Of a DNA stretch of 25,938 nucleotides, positions 11,972 through 23,874 are shown in pieces (position 1 is the stretch's first letter; every line of letters starts with the position of its first letter). The notes under the pieces were generated by a model. The model was given only the letters and a program-made list of their open reading frames with translations. It was not told where the DNA came from and made no database searches. The translations under genes and the position numbers were made by a program. Origin of the DNA: a virus; IMG/VR virus record IMGVR_UViG_3300034272_001011, positions 1-25,938 of that record; one strand, 5' to 3'.

Positions 11972-12235
11972 TTACTTCAGAAAAAAATCTCCGCTGGGTG
12001 ACATAGTAACAGTTTCCCAAGCTACAGGAATCCAGTCATGTTTATCGGAGATAACTGGTTGGAGTCTGTGCGATCCTTCACGAGGGTCGGTTTCCCCATC
12101 CTTGAGGCGACCCATTAGAAGATCCCACATCCACTTATTGCTGGACATGGACGTTGAAGCATCTTGCCAATCATCTTGTCCATAATAATTGTGCTGTAAT
12201 TGAAAACATACTGCTTTATGCGTGGTTTTGTTCAT
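11972..12235 (-). CDS. Hypothetical protein, 87 aa
   Basis: Start taken at the ATG at 12235, whose leader is GCAACCACAAAAAAACAAC; an extension to 12295 would overlap the 49-aa ORF. The protein has several Trp (DDWQDAS, NKWMWDLLMGRLKDG, HDWIPVAWE) and looks globular. No family recognised. Confidence 0.62.
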   Translation of the reverse strand: MNKTTHKAVCFQLQHNYYGQDDWQDASTSMSSNKWMWDLLMGRLKDGETDPREGSHRLQPVISDKHDWIPVAWETVTMSPSGDFFLK

Positions 12236-12381
12236 GTTGTTTTTTTGTGGTTGCGATTTGCTATGGAGCCTGTATTTATGCGGTTCTGTAGCCAATCTTG
12301 TTTATACCCTACAAGGTTTTTGCAGTATGTGCAAGAACTTTTTACAGGGTTCCAGTTGGTACTGGCTTCTGCTCCCCCCAT
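12232..12381 (-). CDS. 49-aa CxxC protein starting inside a hairpin
   Basis: The ATG lies in the loop of hairpin element A (12352-12402), and the TGA overlaps the next start as ATGA. It reads MGGAEASTNWNPVK, then SSCTYCKNLVGYKQDWLQNR and a basic C-terminus (NRNHKKTT). One CxxC is visible. If translated, folding of the hairpin would block its start. Could also start elsewhere, but no other start is in frame after the upstream stop. Confidence 0.5.
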   Translation of the reverse strand: MGGAEASTNWNPVKSSCTYCKNLVGYKQDWLQNRINTGSIANRNHKKTT

Positions 12382-12402
12382 TACAGGAGAAGCAGAGTGT
12401 CA
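12352..12402 (-). repeat. Double-hairpin element A
   Basis: Short stem CCAGT/ACTGG (12352-12365, loop of 4) plus a longer imperfect stem with TCTGCT/AGCAGA and CTCC/GGGG parts (to 12402). It lies just downstream of the stop codon at 12406 in the minus direction. It is related to elements C-K but less regular, and overlaps the start of the 49-aa ORF. Confidence 0.5.
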
Positions 12403-12405
12403 ATA

Positions 12406-12924
12406 CTACTGCTTGAAAAAATACTTCCCATTCTTAAAGCGGATGCTTCGGGTGGAAGTGATTGTTTTAATCGGTTTGCCCCTAAAGTTTGTAACAGAGT
12501 TAACTGCATCCAAAATGCGATCAATTCCGATATAAGCCTCAATAGCAGATGCATACAGAATCGTAAAAACATCCTGCTTGCGATGTTCATTACAGATCAT
12601 GGCATCATGGAGATCGAAATCCCACCAAGCTAGACCAATCTCACGATTAGTAAGCGTAGAGAAATCAATACGATCATCCATATCTGGATCGTTGGCCCAA
12701 CAATCCTTGCAAATGCCACCAAGAAGCATTTTGGAGTAAGGGGAAATGACCTCCTCACAATTAGGGCATTGATGCACATTAAGAGACTGAATTGCAGACT
12801 CCAAACGCTTAATCGAACCCACCAAAATCCGCATATAATCGGCATCGGCTTGACCAATCTTTCTACTAGGGATAGAAAGATGGAAACGCTCCCCAAAAGG
12901 GGATAGGGACTTTTTATTCTTCAT
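12406..12924 (-). CDS. Hypothetical zinc-ribbon-containing protein, 172 aa
   Basis: HQCPNCEEVI (residues 52-61) and GGICKDCW form a two-CxxC zinc ribbon about 20 residues apart, flanked by helical segments (YMRILVGSIKRLESAIQSLN; GLAWWDFDLHDAMI). The SD AGGAG lies just before the ATG. The first codons overlap the 33-aa micro-ORF stop. Family not recognised; role may be in transcription or nucleic-acid handling. Confidence 0.68.
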   Translation of the reverse strand: MKNKKSLSPFGERFHLSIPSRKIGQADADYMRILVGSIKRLESAIQSLNVHQCPNCEEVISPYSKMLLGGICKDCWANDPDMDDRIDFSTLTNREIGLAWWDFDLHDAMICNEHRKQDVFTILYASAIEAYIGIDRILDAVNSVTNFRGKPIKTITSTRSIRFKNGKYFFKQ

Positions 12925-13022
12925 AACTCCTGTGTTGTTATACTGGCTGAATTGCCAGCATCGGTCTTGATGAACCGATTAGGACACTCTGGATTGCTCC
13001 AAAATGCCCTGTATCGAATCAC
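12921..13022 (-). CDS. 33-aa micro-ORF with GTG start
   Basis: Starts with GTG overlapping the upstream stop (GTGA) and ends in ATGA with the next gene, so it is coupled at both ends. Product: IRYRAFWSNPECPNRFIKTD followed by AGNSASITTQEL. The frame passes through hairpin element B. A CPNRF segment is the only motif. Either a real micro-protein or a coupling leader. Confidence 0.42.
   Translation of the reverse strand: MIRYRAFWSNPECPNRFIKTDAGNSASITTQEL
12943..12980 (-). repeat. Double-hairpin element B
   Basis: CTGGC/GCCAG stem (12943-12958, loop TGAATT on the plus strand, sharing the AATTCA loop of D and G) and ATCGGT/ACCGAT stem (12960-12979). Lies inside the 33-aa micro-ORF. Membership of the family is weaker than for C-K. 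Confidence 0.45.
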
Positions 13023-13327
13023 TTATTGAACCTTGTACGGAATCTCCGTTTTAGTTCCTTTGCCTCTTCCTTGATGCGTTTCTGTTCCTTCTTTGCCCTA
13101 GCCTTTTCCAGAACCTTTCTCTGGCATCTGGATCGGATTGCCCAATGGTAAACATCCTCAATCCTGACCACTTCCTCCCGACGAGTACCAAGGGGACGAA
13201 TCTTGAGGAGATCACCCTCTGCTGATGATTCCAGAGTGACGCACAGGGGCTTGCCTGTATCGCACCCGAAACCATAACCAAGGGTGATTCTGGTCTTGCG
13301 CTTAACTGGCTTATTTAGCGGAGTCAT
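13019..13327 (-). CDS. Hypothetical basic protein, 102 aa
   Basis: Start chosen at 13327, where an SD (AAAGGAA) lies just upstream; the frame also runs to 13411 through hairpin C. The N-terminal half is beta-rich (RKTRITLGYGFGCDTG; LCVTLESSAEGDLLKIRPLG; VVRIEDVYHW). The C-terminus is a strongly basic helix (KARAKKEQKRIKEEAKELKR). Probably binds nucleic acid; family unknown. Confidence 0.68.
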   Translation of the reverse strand: MTPLNKPVKRKTRITLGYGFGCDTGKPLCVTLESSAEGDLLKIRPLGTRREEVVRIEDVYHWAIRSRCQRKVLEKARAKKEQKRIKEEAKELKRRFRTRFNK

Positions 13328-13347
13328 TGCTGTTTCCTTTCTGTTTC

Positions 13348-13403
13348 CAATAGCGGAATTGCTACTGGCTACTCCCCTCCCAATTATGGGAAGGGAGAGT
13401 GCC
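13348..13403 (-). repeat. Double-hairpin element C
   Basis: CAATAGC (13348-13354) pairs with GCTACTG (13361-13367, one G-U). GGCTACTCCCCTCCCA pairs with TGGGAAGGGAGAGTGCC (13367-13403), leaving a bulged A next to the closing GGC/GCC. It sits between the stop at 13412 and the SD of the next gene. Confidence 0.72.
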
Positions 13404-13411
13404 AATATCAT

Positions 13412-13612
13412 TTAACCATTTAACTTGTTGTTAAGACTTTCTACAACTTCGTTAGTTACTACTTCATCAACGTCACAAGAAAATCGAATGATAGAACAGG
13501 GTCTACCATCTAAATTTCCTTCTATAACCTTCACTACATAATGAGGGTTAATAAGGGTTTTCTTGTTTGTATTTAGATCAAATACTGACACTAACCTAGT
13601 TAGACTATTCAT
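13412..13612 (-). CDS. Hypothetical protein, 66 aa
   Basis: A small beta-rich product: RLVSVFDLNTNKKTLINPHY, VVKVIEGNLDG and CSIIRFSCDVDEV, then a short helix. This looks like a compact barrel-like fold. The leader is AACAAAAAAACAGC, without SD, downstream of hairpin D. Family not recognised. Confidence 0.62.
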   Translation of the reverse strand: MNSLTRLVSVFDLNTNKKTLINPHYVVKVIEGNLDGRPCSIIRFSCDVDEVVTNEVVESLNNKLNG

Positions 13613-13628
13613 GCTGTTTTTTTGTTAT

Positions 13629-13681
13629 CCTAGACTGAATTATCTAGGCTACTCCCCCCTGTTGCCAAGGAGGAGTGTGCC
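13629..13681 (-). repeat. Double-hairpin element D
   Basis: CCTAGA/TCTAGG stem (13629-13648, loop includes TGAATT on plus) and GGCTACTCC...GGAGTGTGCC stem (13647-13681). Lies between the stop at 13685 and the start at 13612. The closing GGC/GCC matches element C although loop sequences differ. Confidence 0.72.
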
Positions 13682-13684
13682 TAA

Positions 13685-14089
13685 CTAATTATCGTAACCC
13701 ATGATCTGCGAATAGGTTTCCCCACTTTCGTCATCATAAGATTCACCAAAAATATCCGAGCGATACTTGGCTTTTTCTTCTGCTTCGCATTTTTGGCAAA
13801 CAGAAGAAACAAAGTTTCCGTTTCCATCATAAAGTGCAAATGTGGAAAGGTTGCTTCCACATGAGCAAAGGCGAAATTTTCGTGTCCATTTCGTCATTTT
13901 TTTTGAAAGGTAGGGAATCTCTCCCGAAAGAATCTTTCGCAGGTTTTCCCGTCCTTCGGGGAATTTTGGCTCTTCAATTTCCCCACTTGGTGAGCAGGGA
14001 AAACTGAACCCTCCATCAGAGTAGATTTGAAAGTCCATGCTGTAATCAGTTAGGATTTCGTATCCATCTTTTATTGTTTTTATAGTCAT
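13685..14089 (-). CDS. Hypothetical protein with zinc-ribbon cysteines, 134 aa
   Basis: Start chosen at 14089 because AAGGAG lies upstream; the longer frame to 14245 runs through hairpin E and another small gene. The N-terminus is beta-like (DGYEILTDYSMDFQIYSDGG). The C-terminal half has FRLCSCGSNLS and SSVCQKCEAEE, two cysteine pairs around FALYDGNGNF, suggesting a zinc ribbon. The tail is acidic. Unknown function. Confidence 0.66.
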   Translation of the reverse strand: MTIKTIKDGYEILTDYSMDFQIYSDGGFSFPCSPSGEIEEPKFPEGRENLRKILSGEIPYLSKKMTKWTRKFRLCSCGSNLSTFALYDGNGNFVSSVCQKCEAEEKAKYRSDIFGESYDDESGETYSQIMGYDN

Positions 14090-14111
14090 AACTAACTCCT
14101 TATTTTGATAA

Positions 14112-14190
14112 GTCAGGATGCCCCTGACAGGCTTGATACTAACATTAGTACCAACTACTGCACCAGTATCTCTACTGATGCAGGGTGTTG
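14112..14190 (-). repeat. Hairpin element E (three stems)
   Basis: Stems: GTCAGG/CCTGAC (14112-14128), GATACTAA/TTAGTACC (14135-14152) and CAAC...CCAGTA/TACTG...GTTG (14152-14190). The last has the closing CAAC/GTTG pair that replaces GGC/GCC or GAT/ATC in other copies. It lies between the stop at 14194 and the SD before 14089. Confidence 0.7.
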
Positions 14191-14193
14191 AGA

Positions 14194-14316
14194 CTACTTT
14201 CCAGCTACCCAAAAACAGATAGCTATAACTACCATTGTTGCCCACAGAATGCCGAAATAAGGCAATCCTTGGCTAATATAGTCGATTGCGTCCATATTAT
14301 TAGAAGCGTTTTGCAT
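14194..14316 (-). CDS. 40-aa predicted membrane micro-protein
   Basis: MQNASNNMDAIDYISQGLPY followed by a hydrophobic helix (FGILWATMVVIAICFWVAG) ending K: one transmembrane segment. The ATG overlaps the end of the RMF-like gene by 17 bases and has a purine-rich AAGGGGCG upstream as a possible SD. An ATG at 14295 is the alternative. Could be a holin-like or regulatory peptide; unproven. Confidence 0.55.
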   Translation of the reverse strand: MQNASNNMDAIDYISQGLPYFGILWATMVVIAICFWVAGK

Positions 14317-14470
14317 CTCTGCGCCCCTTGTTATAAGCCTTCTTTAACACGGGATTTATATAGGGGCATTTAACCTTATTTGATTTGTGGATAAATGCGT
14401 CCCTGTAACCTTGAGTATAGGCAAGGTTAGTACCTAATTCGCTTACTTTGTTTTCCATACTATCACTCAT
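14300..14470 (-). CDS. Ribosome-modulation-factor-like protein, 56 aa
   Basis: The second half has AYTQGYRDAF, then KCPYINPVLKKAYNKGRRDA. A Gly-Tyr helix, CPY-x-NP and a second helix with GxRxA is the signature of the RMF/CrpP family, whose founder binds ribosomes into inactive 100S dimers. An SD (AAGGAG) precedes the ATG, just after hairpin F. A host-ribosome or other RNA-binding function is inferred by family resemblance only. Confidence 0.65.
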   Translation of the reverse strand: MSDSMENKVSELGTNLAYTQGYRDAFIHKSNKVKCPYINPVLKKAYNKGRRDAKRF

Positions 14471-14499
14471 ATAACTATCTCCTTATTTTTGTTTTGACT

Positions 14500-14553
14500 C
14501 AATAGCCTTATTGCTACTGATTACTGACCCCCTTTTCAGAGGGTCAGCGTATC
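14500..14553 (-). repeat. Double-hairpin element F
   Basis: CAATAGC (14500-14506) with GCTACTG (14513-14519), and GATTACTGACCC...GGGTCAGCGTATC (14519-14553). The 38 bases at 14486-14523 are identical to those at 16396-16433 in element J, yet the outer stem uses different bases (CTGACCC instead of ATTGCCCC). Lies between the stop at 14558 and the next SD. Confidence 0.75.
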
Positions 14554-14557
14554 AATA

Positions 14558-14818
14558 TCAGTTTTCTACAGGAATTCCATTATTAGCCCCCATATAAGAG
14601 AACCAATCTTGCGGCTTTTGTTTAGCGTCTCCGTTTCCTACCTTTTTAAGCCACTTATTTATGTGACGAGTAGTAGTCGATGACCATGCGTATGAAGTGC
14701 GATAAAATCCCACTCCATGAACATAAGCCGCAACTGGAGTTTCATAACTAAACAGAAGAGAATTTCCATTGCTGAAAATTACTTCGTTGATGTTATCACC
14801 ATGCGTTTTTAGTTTCAT
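14558..14818 (-). CDS. DUF8033-like phage protein, 86 aa
   Basis: NEVIFSNGNSLLFSYETPVA, then AYVHGVGFYRT and SSTTTRHINKWLKK. A beta-strand pair, a SYxTPVAAY element and an STTTxHIN helix start recall a small phage family (DUF8033-like). Good SD (AAGGAG) before the ATG. Unknown role; not confirmed by search. Confidence 0.62.
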   Translation of the reverse strand: MKLKTHGDNINEVIFSNGNSLLFSYETPVAAYVHGVGFYRTSYAWSSTTTRHINKWLKKVGNGDAKQKPQDWFSYMGANNGIPVEN

Positions 14819-14849
14819 ATTACTATCTCCTTTTTTGCTGTTTGTTTAT

Positions 14850-14911
14850 CTTGCTGACTGAATTGTTAGCAAGCTACTGCACCAGAAGTTGCCTTCTGAT
14901 GCAGGGTGCTT
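14850..14911 (-). repeat. Double-hairpin element G
   Basis: CTTGCT/AGCAAG stem (14850-14873) and AAGC...CCAGAAG/CTTCTG...GCTT stem (14871-14911). The closing AAGC/GCTT pair is shared with H. Lies between the stop at 14925 and the SD of the 14818 gene. Confidence 0.72.
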
Positions 14912-14924
14912 ACTGACTAAATAA

Positions 14925-15191
14925 CTACTTCAAGAAAATAATGAAGTAATCATCAGTTCGTTTATCTACTCGGTAAACTTCGTTGATTGCAAACTCAACA
15001 AAGTTGCGAGCATAAGGCTCAACTTTATGCCCTACTGCTGACCAAGTTTCGGGCATATCGTTTTCCTTATCCTCTTCCCAATAGATAACATACTCAAAAT
15101 TAAGTTTTAGCTTTAGGCTACCATCATTTTTGATGATTTCACCTTGGGCTTTATTCTTAATGATTTTAAGCAGATTAGCTTTTTCACTCAT
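14925..15191 (-). CDS. Hypothetical protein, 88 aa
   Basis: KANLLKIIKNKAQGEIIKN, then NFEYVIYWEEDKENDMPETW and FVEFAINEVYRV: an alternating alpha/beta pattern with a mixed-charge surface. An SD-like AAGGAAGG lies upstream. The sequence around its stop is repeated at the stop of the next gene upstream (see findings). Family unknown. Confidence 0.66.
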   Translation of the reverse strand: MSEKANLLKIIKNKAQGEIIKNDGSLKLKLNFEYVIYWEEDKENDMPETWSAVGHKVEPYARNFVEFAINEVYRVDKRTDDYFIIFLK

Positions 15192-15210
15192 TCTGTCTCA
15201 CCTTCCTTTC

Positions 15211-15264
15211 CTTGCTTTGTTAGCAAGCTATTACCCTGTCCTGTCACAACAGGGCAATGTGCTT
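15211..15264 (-). repeat. Double-hairpin element H
   Basis: CTTGCT/AGCAAG stem (15211-15227) and AAGCTATTACCCTGT...ACAGGGCAATGTGCTT stem (15225-15264). Same closing pair as G, different distal stem. Between the stop at 15278 and the SD before 15191. Confidence 0.74.
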
Positions 15265-15277
15265 ACTGACTAAATAA

Positions 15278-15460
15278 CTACTTGCAATTTTCGTTATTTA
15301 ACTCTGCGATTGCGATGTTAATTCGCTTATCTCGCTTTTCTGCTTCCCCTGTTGTATCTTTGAACAACAGGGAAATCGCTCTCTGTTTAGACTGAATAGA
15401 AAGGAGTTGTTTAACTCCTAACTTTTTCAGTTCTTCAATAGCTTTTCTTTCTTCACTCAT
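15278..15460 (-). CDS. Hypothetical helical protein, 60 aa
   Basis: MSEERKAIEELKKLGVKQLL, then SIQSKQRAISLLFKD and RDKRINIAIAELN: a highly charged helical protein. SD AAGGAGGTGAG precedes the ATG closely. Function unknown. Confidence 0.65.
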   Translation of the reverse strand: MSEERKAIEELKKLGVKQLLSIQSKQRAISLLFKDTTGEAEKRDKRINIAIAELNNENCK

Positions 15461-15481
15461 TCTGTCTCACCTCCTTTTTTT

Positions 15482-15532
15482 CTGTACCCTATGCACAGAT
15501 TATTGCCCCCCCATCAGGAGGGGCAATGTATC
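15482..15532 (-). repeat. Double-hairpin element I
   Basis: CTGTAC/GCACAG stem (15482-15498, one G-U) and GATTATTGCCCCCC...GGAGGGGCAATGTATC stem (15498-15532). The 3' base reaches the TAG stop of the ArdC-like gene. Located between that stop and the SD of the next gene. Confidence 0.74.
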
Positions 15533-16383
15533 TAGGCACTAACTCCAAGAATGAAGTCACAAGCGGCATGGGCTTTTCCAGCCGCACTAACAACTAGCTT
15601 TTTGTCATCTTTCAGCCTCTTCAGCCAAGAAGCAATATATGCCGCTGAATTGTCGATTGTTCGATCAACAATACCAGCAACAGCGCAAAGATAGCTTGCG
15701 CCCATCTCTGCAACTAACTCCTCTTTGGCATAATTGCTATCTCCAAACTTGCTGACCACATTTTGAAACCTTCCTAATCTTGACTCATGACCTGTGGCAT
15801 GGGTCAATTCATGGAACAGGGTAGAATAATATTCAGCCTCTCCCTTGAAGGTTTCTTTTTTCGGCATATTAACAACGTCAGAATCCCGACGATAATAGGC
15901 AGACTGATCAACGTGAGTTATAACAGGCTTTTTCTGCATATTCGCCACAATTTTTTCAGCCTCTTCAATAGGGTTGAAAGTAATCTGTGGCTCATCTGAT
16001 ACAGGAATGTTCAGCCCATCGCATTGACTAACATTAAAGACGTTATAATAACGCAACATCGGAATCGTTTTCTTTTCCTTTGTTACCTTATCAATGGTCT
16101 CTAACATTTTCCAGTAAACAACCATTGTTGACTTTTCTCCTTTCCTGACCTGACCTCCTAACTCCGTGGCTTGCTTATAGCTGACCCAATAGGGTGAGGA
16201 AAAGCCAGCACAAGAGAGAAGCCAGACATTCAGACCCCTGTAAGCCTTCTTGCTCACATAGTTGATAGGGAACTGGTTTGAACCGCCAGCCCACGGCTTG
16301 TGCCAAGGCACAACACCCTGTTCCAAAAGGTCAATAATGCGATCAGTTACAATGCTGTAAACGTCAACTTTTTCTTTGCTCAT
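15532..16383 (-). CDS. ardC: ArdC-like antirestriction protein (ssDNA-binding plus zincin domain)
   Basis: 283 residues, close to the usual size. The N-terminus (VYSIVTDRIIDLLEQGVVPW, then HKPW) is the ArdC-type ssDNA-binding domain. The centre has YYNVFNVSQCDGL (112-124). A zincin follows: FHELTHATGHESRL (190-203) contains the HExxH site, and EELVAEMGA (221-229) probably gives the third ligand. ArdC proteins protect incoming DNA from restriction on plasmids and phages. It has a good SD (AAGGAG) and lies near the 5' end of the minus operon, fitting early expression. Confidence 0.87.
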   Translation of the reverse strand: MSKEKVDVYSIVTDRIIDLLEQGVVPWHKPWAGGSNQFPINYVSKKAYRGLNVWLLSCAGFSSPYWVSYKQATELGGQVRKGEKSTMVVYWKMLETIDKVTKEKKTIPMLRYYNVFNVSQCDGLNIPVSDEPQITFNPIEEAEKIVANMQKKPVITHVDQSAYYRRDSDVVNMPKKETFKGEAEYYSTLFHELTHATGHESRLGRFQNVVSKFGDSNYAKEELVAEMGASYLCAVAGIVDRTIDNSAAYIASWLKRLKDDKKLVVSAAGKAHAACDFILGVSA

Positions 16384-16409
16384 AATACTATCTCCTTTTT
16401 GTTTTGACT

Positions 16410-16463
16410 CAATAGCCTTATTGCTACTGATTATTGCCCCCTGTTTCCAAGGGGCAATTTATC
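16410..16463 (-). repeat. Double-hairpin element J
   Basis: CAATAGC/GCTACTG stem (16410-16429) and GATTATTGCCCC...GGGGCAATTTATC stem (16429-16463). Shares 38 identical bases with element F. Located between the stop at 16468 and the SD of the ArdC-like gene. Confidence 0.76.
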
Positions 16464-16467
16464 AATA

Positions 16468-16629
16468 TCAATTCCGATTTAAAAGACGCCTTTTAGCTTC
16501 ATTTAGATCGGCAATCTCCTCTTCAGAGTAATCAAACCTTATTGCCATGCGTAGTTCCATTTCTACTCCTTCAAGGGTCAAATCTTCTAGGATTTTAATG
16601 ACGCATTTTTCGCTATATTCTTTTTCCAT
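16468..16629 (-). CDS. 53-aa acidic micro-protein
   Basis: MEKEYSEKCVIKILEDLTLE, then MELRMAIRFDYSEEEIADLN and a basic end. Mixed-charge helices. Good SD (AAGGAG) before the ATG. It is the first gene of the minus operon downstream of the control region, a typical place for an early regulatory or anti-host peptide; function unknown. Confidence 0.66.
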   Translation of the reverse strand: MEKEYSEKCVIKILEDLTLEGVEMELRMAIRFDYSEEEIADLNEAKRRLLNRN

Positions 16630-16650
16630 ACTATCTCCTTATGTTTTGAT

Positions 16651-16735
16651 GCTTTGAAAGTCAAAGCCACCTTCAACACTTCTGTGCTGATTATTGCCCC
16701 CTGATTAGTCGAAACTAAACAAGGGGCAATTTATC
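16651..16735 (-). repeat. Hairpin element K (three stems, operon leader)
   Basis: GCTTTGA/TCAAAGC (16651-16667), CAACAC/GTGCTG (16674-16689, one G-U) and GATTATTGCCCC...GGGGCAATTTATC (16689-16735), with an extra inner TTAGT/ACTAA pair. It precedes the first gene of the operon, so the element is not only intercistronic. Confidence 0.72.
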
Positions 16736-16839
16736 AAAACAGCTTTTATGAGTTTTTTCCCTTCTTGCAACGGATTAAATTTATGACCAATGCTCAACCT
16801 AGTAGGGGATTTATTGTGCCTTACTTTCTATTGCTACAG

Positions 16840-16854
16840 GGTGAGATCGTCACC
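16840..16854. promoter_or_regulatory. Palindrome 1, GGTGA-N5-TCACC (candidate operator)
   Basis: Perfect 5-bp inverted repeat GGTGA/TCACC with 5-base spacer GATCG, preceded by AG. The same half-sites and the same AGGGTGAGA left flank recur at palindrome 2, 134 bases away. Likely operator pair for a dimeric regulator; inference. Confidence 0.5.
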
Positions 16855-16961
16855 AGCAATTGGCGAAAGGGGCAGGTCAAAATCCAGTTCGGGTTTGAAC
16901 CAGTCAACCAGCAAGCTAAAATATCAAAGATCATGAGACGGAGATGAACCCCGAATTGTGG

Positions 16962-16996
16962 AGCGGTTCAAAGGGTGAGAGCTTCACCAAACCGCT
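16962..16996. promoter_or_regulatory. Palindrome 2, nested GGTGA/TCACC inside AGCGGTT/AACCGCT
   Basis: GGTGA (16974-16978) and TCACC (16984-16988) sit inside an outer pair AGCGGTT (16962-16968) and AACCGCT (16990-16996). It lies just downstream of a minus-strand promoter-like sequence, so it could act at DNA (operator) or RNA (5' UTR hairpin) level. Confidence 0.52.
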
Positions 16997-17011
16997 ACCA
17001 ACTTCATCCAC

Positions 17012-17038
17012 CCTATAAAAGAATCTTTCAATGGTCAA
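17012..17038 (-). promoter_or_regulatory. Candidate minus-strand promoter of the early operon
   Basis: In the minus direction, TTGACC (17033-17038) and TATAGG (17012-17017) are separated by 15 bases, shorter than ideal. Transcription would start near 17005, cross palindrome 2 and element K and enter the 16629 gene. Weak to moderate. Confidence 0.35.
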
Positions 17039-23611: not shown

Positions 23612-23760
23612 ATTTTTATAGGTGTGAGTTGAGAGTATTGAGATAGTTTGTGTTTAAGGTCAATGCTTTTGTAGGGATAAAGAAACAGAAAAGAGTAAAG
23701 CAAACTCCCCCCTTATCCCCCCACCCTCAAGTGAGAAAGCCTGTCAGAAAAGAAAAGAAA

Positions 23761-23874
23761 CTACTGCTCACCGATAATCTGCAAGCAGGGTGTTTCTCCT
23801 CGTTTCTTACGGGTATGGAGTTTTGGTTCTCCAAAGCCGAGTTCTTGGATCATGTGGTACGCATTCACACCCAT
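23761..23874 (-). CDS. 37-aa ORF, doubtful
   Basis: MGVNAYHMIQELGFGEPKLH, then TRKKRGETPCLQIIGEQ. Lies between the terminase and the 23611 gene with a GTGAGG just before the ATG (too close for a normal SD). A competing plus-strand frame (23650-23889) exists. Kept because composition looks protein-like and it sits on the strand of its neighbours. Confidence 0.35.
   Translation of the reverse strand: MGVNAYHMIQELGFGEPKLHTRKKRGETPCLQIIGEQ

What the first reader, a model, noticed from the sequence alone, without database searches (positions are those of the whole stretch)
12352..16735. Family of about eleven double-hairpin elements between genes
Seen: elements A-K (12352, 12943, 13348, 13629, 14112, 14500, 14850, 15211, 15482, 16410 and 16651 onward). 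C-J lie between a stop codon and the next gene start, usually just ahead of its SD; K precedes the first gene. In minus-strand order each has a larger stem closed by a short helix, then a small 5-7 bp hairpin. Closing helices change together: GGC/GCC in C and D, GAT/ATC in F, J and K, AAGC/GCTT in G and H, CAAC/GTTG in E. Distal stems change too (ATTGCCCC, CTGACCC, ACCCTGT, CTGCA-CCAG) while pairing is kept. The 3' side is conserved as A-G/A-TA-G/A just before the closing strand, leaving a bulge. No U-tract follows, so these are not ordinary terminators. Inference: an RNA element bound by a phage or host protein, or a processing/stability or translation switch for this operon.
Basis: partly seen in the sequence, partly recalled or inferred. 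Interest (0 to 1): 0.87.

Follow-up and report, generated by a model that had tools for sequence, protein, structure and literature searches.

The report
Phage gene junctions with strand-sharing RNA hairpins
At the gene boundaries of one small-gene operon, an uncultured phage repeats a small RNA device eleven times in which one strand can pair with either of two neighbours; the device is conserved in related phages while the genes around it are swapped, so it looks like a reusable RNA 'full stop' between messages whose exact job is untested.

Summary
All eleven copies (A-K, minus strand, 12352-16739) are found by one covariance model, nothing else in the window is, and about 100 hits turn up in related virus contigs on the same coding strand. 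The closing helix and upper stem covary strongly. The new fact is that the 3' closing strand (b) pairs with both the 5' strand (a) and the 3' arm (a') of the small second hairpin. All three strands change together across copies, so the two hairpins are mutually exclusive over 4-6 bp. Strand a abuts the upstream stop codon (-10 to +6 nt); a short A-rich, usually SD-bearing leader follows the last hairpin. Genes reshuffle between elements in relatives, yet most keep one. No Rfam family matches. I read it as RNA-level punctuation between messages: a:b forms co-transcriptionally, is resolved or cut at the internal loop, then b refolds with a' to cap the next message (about 0.35). Translational gating is the main rival. 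The element class, its RNA level and its bistability are supported by comparative sequence; the mechanism and the host are not established. Novelty: new variant of a known kind.

The parts
16673..16739 (-). Element K: a 16733-16739, b 16685-16691, small hairpin 16673-16690; behind the structured leader, before the 53-aa gene
16409..16467 (-). Element J: a abuts the stop of the 53-aa gene; small hairpin 16409-16430; before ardC
15481..15536 (-). Element I: a overlaps the ardC stop; small hairpin 15481-15499
15211..15267 (-). Element H: small hairpin 15211-15227
14850..14914 (-). Element G: small hairpin 14850-14873
14499..14557 (-). Element F: small hairpin 14499-14520
14133..14193 (-). Element E: small hairpin 14133-14154; a third hairpin follows before the SD
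13629..13685 (-). Element D: small hairpin 13629-13648
13347..13407 (-). Element C: small hairpin 13347-13368
12940..13019 (-). Element B: hairpin b:a' 12960-12979 plus a third hairpin 12940-12959
12352..12405 (-). Element A: directly after the stop of the 172-aa gene; a:b carries one A-C mismatch; no clear gene start within about 125 nt

Best explanation
Shown by sequence comparison: each copy is a structured RNA in the transcript, and its middle strand b can pair with a (extending the large hairpin to roughly 15-20 bp around an A[A/C]N/UA internal loop) or with a' (forming the small hairpin), but not fully with both. Inferred: it is RNA punctuation between cistrons. As RNA polymerase passes, a:b forms first and makes a long interrupted hairpin directly behind the stop codon. 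This is resolved, most likely by an endoribonuclease of the RNase III type acting at the internal loop. The upstream message keeps the loop-capped upper stem as a protected 3' end; freed b refolds with a' as a 5' hairpin a short way ahead of the next ribosome-binding site. Each accessory gene thereby becomes an independent small message, which lets genes be swapped between elements without losing expression. The cleavage step and the enzyme are inference; the strand exchange rests on covariation and predicted energies.
For: Both pairings covary: a:b 98.2% paired, score 0.791 vs 0.348 shuffled; b:a' 94.1%, 0.914 vs 0.337; both at once at b2-b5 in 91% of cells vs 59% (max 68%) shuffled. In L045:6638 and L112:4521 a and a' are unlike each other yet, read by eye, both fit b (b:a' with a tandem G-A; the automatic hairpin scorer missed it), so this is not just a duplicated arm. 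Up to b, a:b is in the predicted minimum in 10 of 11 window copies; once a' is present the states differ by only -4.9 to +3.3 kcal/mol with no conserved preference (E excluded), as expected if they act one after the other. Strand a lies within -10 to +6 nt of the stop codon. In the window every unit, including the leader and the last gene, ends in an element. Neither state hides the SD. Genes swap between elements in relatives.
Against: No transcript ends are known; the host and its nucleases are unknown; the conserved internal loop is not a recognised RNase III signature. In L045 and L112 the last genes of the region lack an element at their 3' side. The copies behind which a predicted energy preference for b:a' exists would have to be cut before exchange.
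Confidence: 0.35

Rival explanations
1. Translational gate at the junction: a ribosome terminating at the abutting stop codon covers a, so b pairs with a'; when it leaves, b can return to a. The exchange couples or insulates translation of neighbouring genes.
For: Tight stop-codon anchoring. In marine relatives a second class of junction hairpin locks the AUG inside the a' strand. Ribosome-dependent refolding at junctions is an accepted model of translational coupling (PMC12548453).
Against: K has no gene upstream and A no close gene downstream, yet both keep the architecture. In the window's class the SD is free in both states. In class II, covering a would favour hiding the AUG, the opposite of ordinary coupling.
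Confidence: 0.27
2. Operator for an RNA-binding protein (phage or host) that recognises the internal loop and controls these genes together.
For: A[A/C]N/UA internal loop is nearly invariant while stems vary; one site per gene suits a regulon.
Against: Does not explain why b must also pair with a'. No candidate protein: the small genes have no Pfam match.
Confidence: 0.17
3. put-like antiterminator: the two-hairpin RNA binds RNA polymerase and keeps it going through the operon.
For: Similar size and two stem-loops to HK022 put RNA (PMC9378689).
Against: put occurs once per early transcript (putL, putR) and acts over at least 10 kb; here there is one per gene, and the long rest of the operon (3.3-12.3 kb) has none.
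Confidence: 0.1
4. DNA-level cassette or recombination site that shuffles accessory genes.
For: Genes are exchanged between the same elements in relatives, e.g. the 86-aa gene behind G in the window and behind K in L009; ardC behind J, K or G.
Against: Stems differ in sequence between copies while pairing is kept, and G-U pairs are frequent on one strand; recombination repeats should keep sequence. All copies lie on the coding strand next to stop codons.
Confidence: 0.05

Closest known systems
HK022 putL/putR antiterminator RNA
   Same: About 70 nt, two adjacent stem-loops in early phage RNA (PMC9378689)
   Different: put is present once per early transcript; here one per gene junction, sequence-variable, with a strand shared by both hairpins
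RNase III processing sites in phage early mRNA (T7 intercistronic sites, lambda N leader; from memory)
   Same: Irregular hairpins between early genes; similar helix length with an internal loop
   Different: No cleavage evidence here; shared b strand and conserved A[A/C]N/UA loop are not features I know from those sites
Attenuators and RNA-unfolding translational coupling (PMC12548453)
   Same: Mutually exclusive pairing next to a stop codon, open to gating by a terminating ribosome
   Different: Eleven copies in one operon; the window's class does not hide the RBS in either state
PeSL cassettes of T4-type phages (from memory)
   Same: Repeated intergenic stem-loops in a region of small shuffled genes
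   Different: PeSLs carry an early promoter; promoter-like matches here are at chance level
tRNA punctuation of mitochondrial transcripts (from memory)
   Same: Repeated RNA structures separate genes and mark message ends, in the model proposed here
   Different: Not tRNA-like; processing unproven

Membership tests
Any Rfam 15 family | Covariance-model score above the family's gathering cut-off | tested here: not met
   Only tRNAs pass in the window; weak sub-threshold hits such as GA-cis, 21 of 34.7 bits
Intrinsic terminator | G+C-rich hairpin followed by a U-tract | tested here: not met
   None of the eight terminator-like sites is one of the elements
HK022 put RNA | Two adjacent stem-loops of about 70 nt in total | tested here: met
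HK022 put RNA | One copy per early transcript, near the early promoter | tested here: not met
   Eleven copies at gene junctions against putL and putR
HK022 put RNA | Binds RNA polymerase beta' zinc-binding domain and suppresses termination | not testable with these tools
   Needs biochemistry
RNase III processing site | Interrupted duplex of about 20 bp | tested here: inconclusive
   Upper stem mostly 10-12 bp plus 5-7 bp a:b; the length rule is from memory
RNase III processing site | Cleavage by RNase III | not testable with these tools
   No transcript data held
Translational coupling by RNA unfolding | Structure that hides the downstream RBS or start codon | tested here: not met
   SD and AUG lie outside both hairpins in the window's copies; met only in class II of marine relatives
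T4-type PeSL cassette | Each unit carries an early promoter | tested here: not met
   Promoter-like matches at chance level, 12 found against 11.8 expected; the definition is from memory

The most novel reading that the evidence does not exclude
A phage operon punctuated by self-resolving three-strand RNA dividers: at each junction strand b is handed from the upstream message's hairpin to the downstream message's hairpin, so that any gene placed between two dividers becomes a separately capped mini-message. This would make the accessory region plug-and-play, and the same strand exchange would reappear in SD-less marine relatives, where it could expose or hide the start codon.
Probability: 0.3. 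Interest if true: 0.85.

Novelty: new variant of a known kind. Interest (0 to 1): 0.7.

Why it matters
Phages swap small accessory genes constantly, and how a newcomer gene comes to be correctly expressed inside an operon is poorly understood. A repeated, sequence-flexible RNA unit that stays while genes change gives a concrete, testable answer. If the strand exchange works as proposed, it is also a compact natural part for separating genes in synthetic operons.

Tried and rejected
Rfam at gathering and relaxed thresholds: only chance-level hits besides tRNAs. Known phage records: no DNA match, no TerL match, distant exonuclease and ArdC matches only. Host by prophage search of GTDB genomes: one weak hit in an Acidobacteriota MAG (27% identity), not informative. 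Intrinsic terminators and promoters: not the elements. Integron attC: considered because each unit is gene plus hairpin; no shared GTTRRRY core is visible and the stems vary freely, so set aside without a formal test. Three-way junction (a with a TCAA motif after hairpin 2): predicted for J and F and readable in K, but not in C, D, E, G or H, so not the common structure. A strict rule of one element after every gene: broken in L045 and L112. A ribosomal S8-type internal loop was compared from memory and does not fit. Paper searches for similar phage intergenic motifs found no match.

Full report
WHAT IS THERE. The window is a 25,938-base virus record with a RecT-like protein, a PD-(D/E)XK exonuclease, terminase subunits, an ArdC-type antirestriction gene (15532-16383) and three tRNAs. 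On the minus strand between 12352 and 16739 lies a run of mostly small genes without Pfam matches around ardC. At each junction with a gap sits one element; the one overlapping gene pair I saw (14194-14470) has none between its members.

ANATOMY (5' to 3' in the transcript). Strand a (7 nt); A-[A/C]-N; upper stem, mostly 10-12 bp and longer in K, often with a GNRA or UUCG-type loop; U-A; strand b; a small loop, often AAUNNN; strand a'. Then usually an A-rich stretch of roughly 13-25 nt with an SD and the start codon; K, E and B have one more hairpin before it. In the a:b state b closes the large stem; in the b:a' state b is the 5' arm of the small hairpin. b1 pairs with a7 in all 53 distinct copies (G-C 27, A-U 26), and b2-b5 fit both a and a' in most.

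STATISTICS. A strict descriptor scan found seven of the elements on the minus strand, where shuffled sequence gave about four spurious hits per strand, so the descriptor alone is weak evidence. A covariance model built from 31 copies found all eleven in the window and 110 hits in 853 kb of window plus related loci (the loci overlap and include training copies). Closing helix plus upper stem: 100% paired, covariation 0.877 vs 0.306 shuffled. a:b alone 98.2%, 0.791 vs 0.348. b:a' alone 94.1%, 0.914 vs 0.337. Both pairings at once at b2-b5: 91% against 59% (maximum 68%) in 2000 shuffles. Caveats: the register of a' was picked for best pairing; three odd rows (the two L045/L112 copies and one badly registered E copy) were left out of the alignment used, though they are; and related copies are not independent. 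Nine or so sequence families at different junctions show the pattern.

CONSERVATION AND SHUFFLING. Relatives found through ArdC, exonuclease, RecT and element patterns carry from one to about ten copies each. Element types tend to keep their order along the operon (K, J, I after ardC, E, D, C, A) while genes move: the 86-aa gene sits behind G in the window and behind K in L009; the 66-aa gene behind D or a C-like copy; ardC behind J, K or G; the MKKFVVEH gene behind D or C. More distant marine contigs (L153/L162, L155/L165, L159/L164, L161/L163) have copies of the same class with a=TCTTGAT, hexaloops such as AATGAG and a'=CCTGA. Relatives without copies exist, e.g. those of L048 and L055, though such records may be fragments.

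POSITION. In every copy for which the script found an upstream gene, the stop codon ends within -10 to +6 nt of a. K follows a structured leader instead, and A precedes no clear start within about 125 nt in the window, L009, L010 and L063 (where the program's 64-nt TTG start for the window is not convincing). Neither state hides the SD.

ENERGETICS. Up to b, the a:b form is the predicted minimum in 10 of 11 copies; once a' is present the two states differ by -4.9 to +3.3 kcal/mol (E excluded, wrong register in that script), with no conserved preference (probabilities). The order of synthesis therefore favours a:b first and exchange afterwards. This is a prediction from standard parameters that do not know any special stability of the internal loop.

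MECHANISM. The features to explain are: placement directly behind stop codons and behind the leader, strand sharing without a fixed equilibrium, a free RBS, and gene exchange without loss of elements. Punctuation by strand exchange, probably with cutting at the internal loop, explains all of these in the window; the L045 and L112 operon ends show it is not absolute. Translational gating explains the stop-codon anchor and the AUG-locking class II, but not K, A or the free RBS. put-like antitermination explains the size and two hairpins but not the copy number. A protein operator explains the conserved internal loop but not strand sharing. Recombination sites are disfavoured by strand-specific G-U covariation.

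CLASS II. Three marine contigs plus L171 carry 11 copies of another junction hairpin: CCCCGC-NNCG-GCGGGG (or close), then b=C[G/A]TAGC.., and a' ending in GCTATG, locking the AUG in a long stem (about 13-19 bp, some with one mismatch) with compensatory changes; a=[G/T]CTA[C/T] precedes most but not all. It shares the strand-competition idea, not the A[A/C]N/UA loop, so I list it as related, not as a member.

VERDICT. A real, conserved, multi-copy RNA element class of uncultured phages with mutually exclusive pairings, absent from Rfam. Existence, RNA level and strand sharing are well supported; function is open. Interest 0.7.

Noticed in passing
window 16764-17002 (-): The leader upstream of element K is itself predicted to be structured in eight relatives, with 38 predicted pairs (over the whole aligned stretch) showing changes on both sides; it includes hairpins of the GGTGA-N5-TCACC kind. 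No Rfam match.
   Followed up: partly
window 17012-17038 (-): Promoter-like site TTGACC-N15-TATAGG, roughly conserved in relatives, about 300 nt upstream of K; spacing is short and activity is untested.
   Followed up: partly
window 23750-23800 (-): Downstream of TerL a single hairpin has the same A-C-C/U-A internal loop (GGAGAAAC-ACC-CTGC...GCAG-TA-GTTTCTTT) followed by a pyrimidine-rich tail; it is conserved in relatives such as L047 and L105-L108 that lack or were not found to have the junction elements.
   Followed up: partly
L155, L161, L171, L172 (marine contigs): Class II junction hairpins, 11 copies, in which the start codon is locked in the 3' arm of a long stem with compensatory changes.
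   Followed up: partly
window 12232-12310 (-): Conserved block ACAGAACCGC[A/T]TAAATAC (ACG in place of ACA in two relatives) between element A and the next gene, also in L115 and L167; perhaps the start of the next transcription unit.
   Followed up: partly
window 12232-12381 (-): Small CxxC reading frame overlapping element A; in L063 the matching frame has no ordinary start codon after an in-frame stop (read by eye).
   Followed up: no
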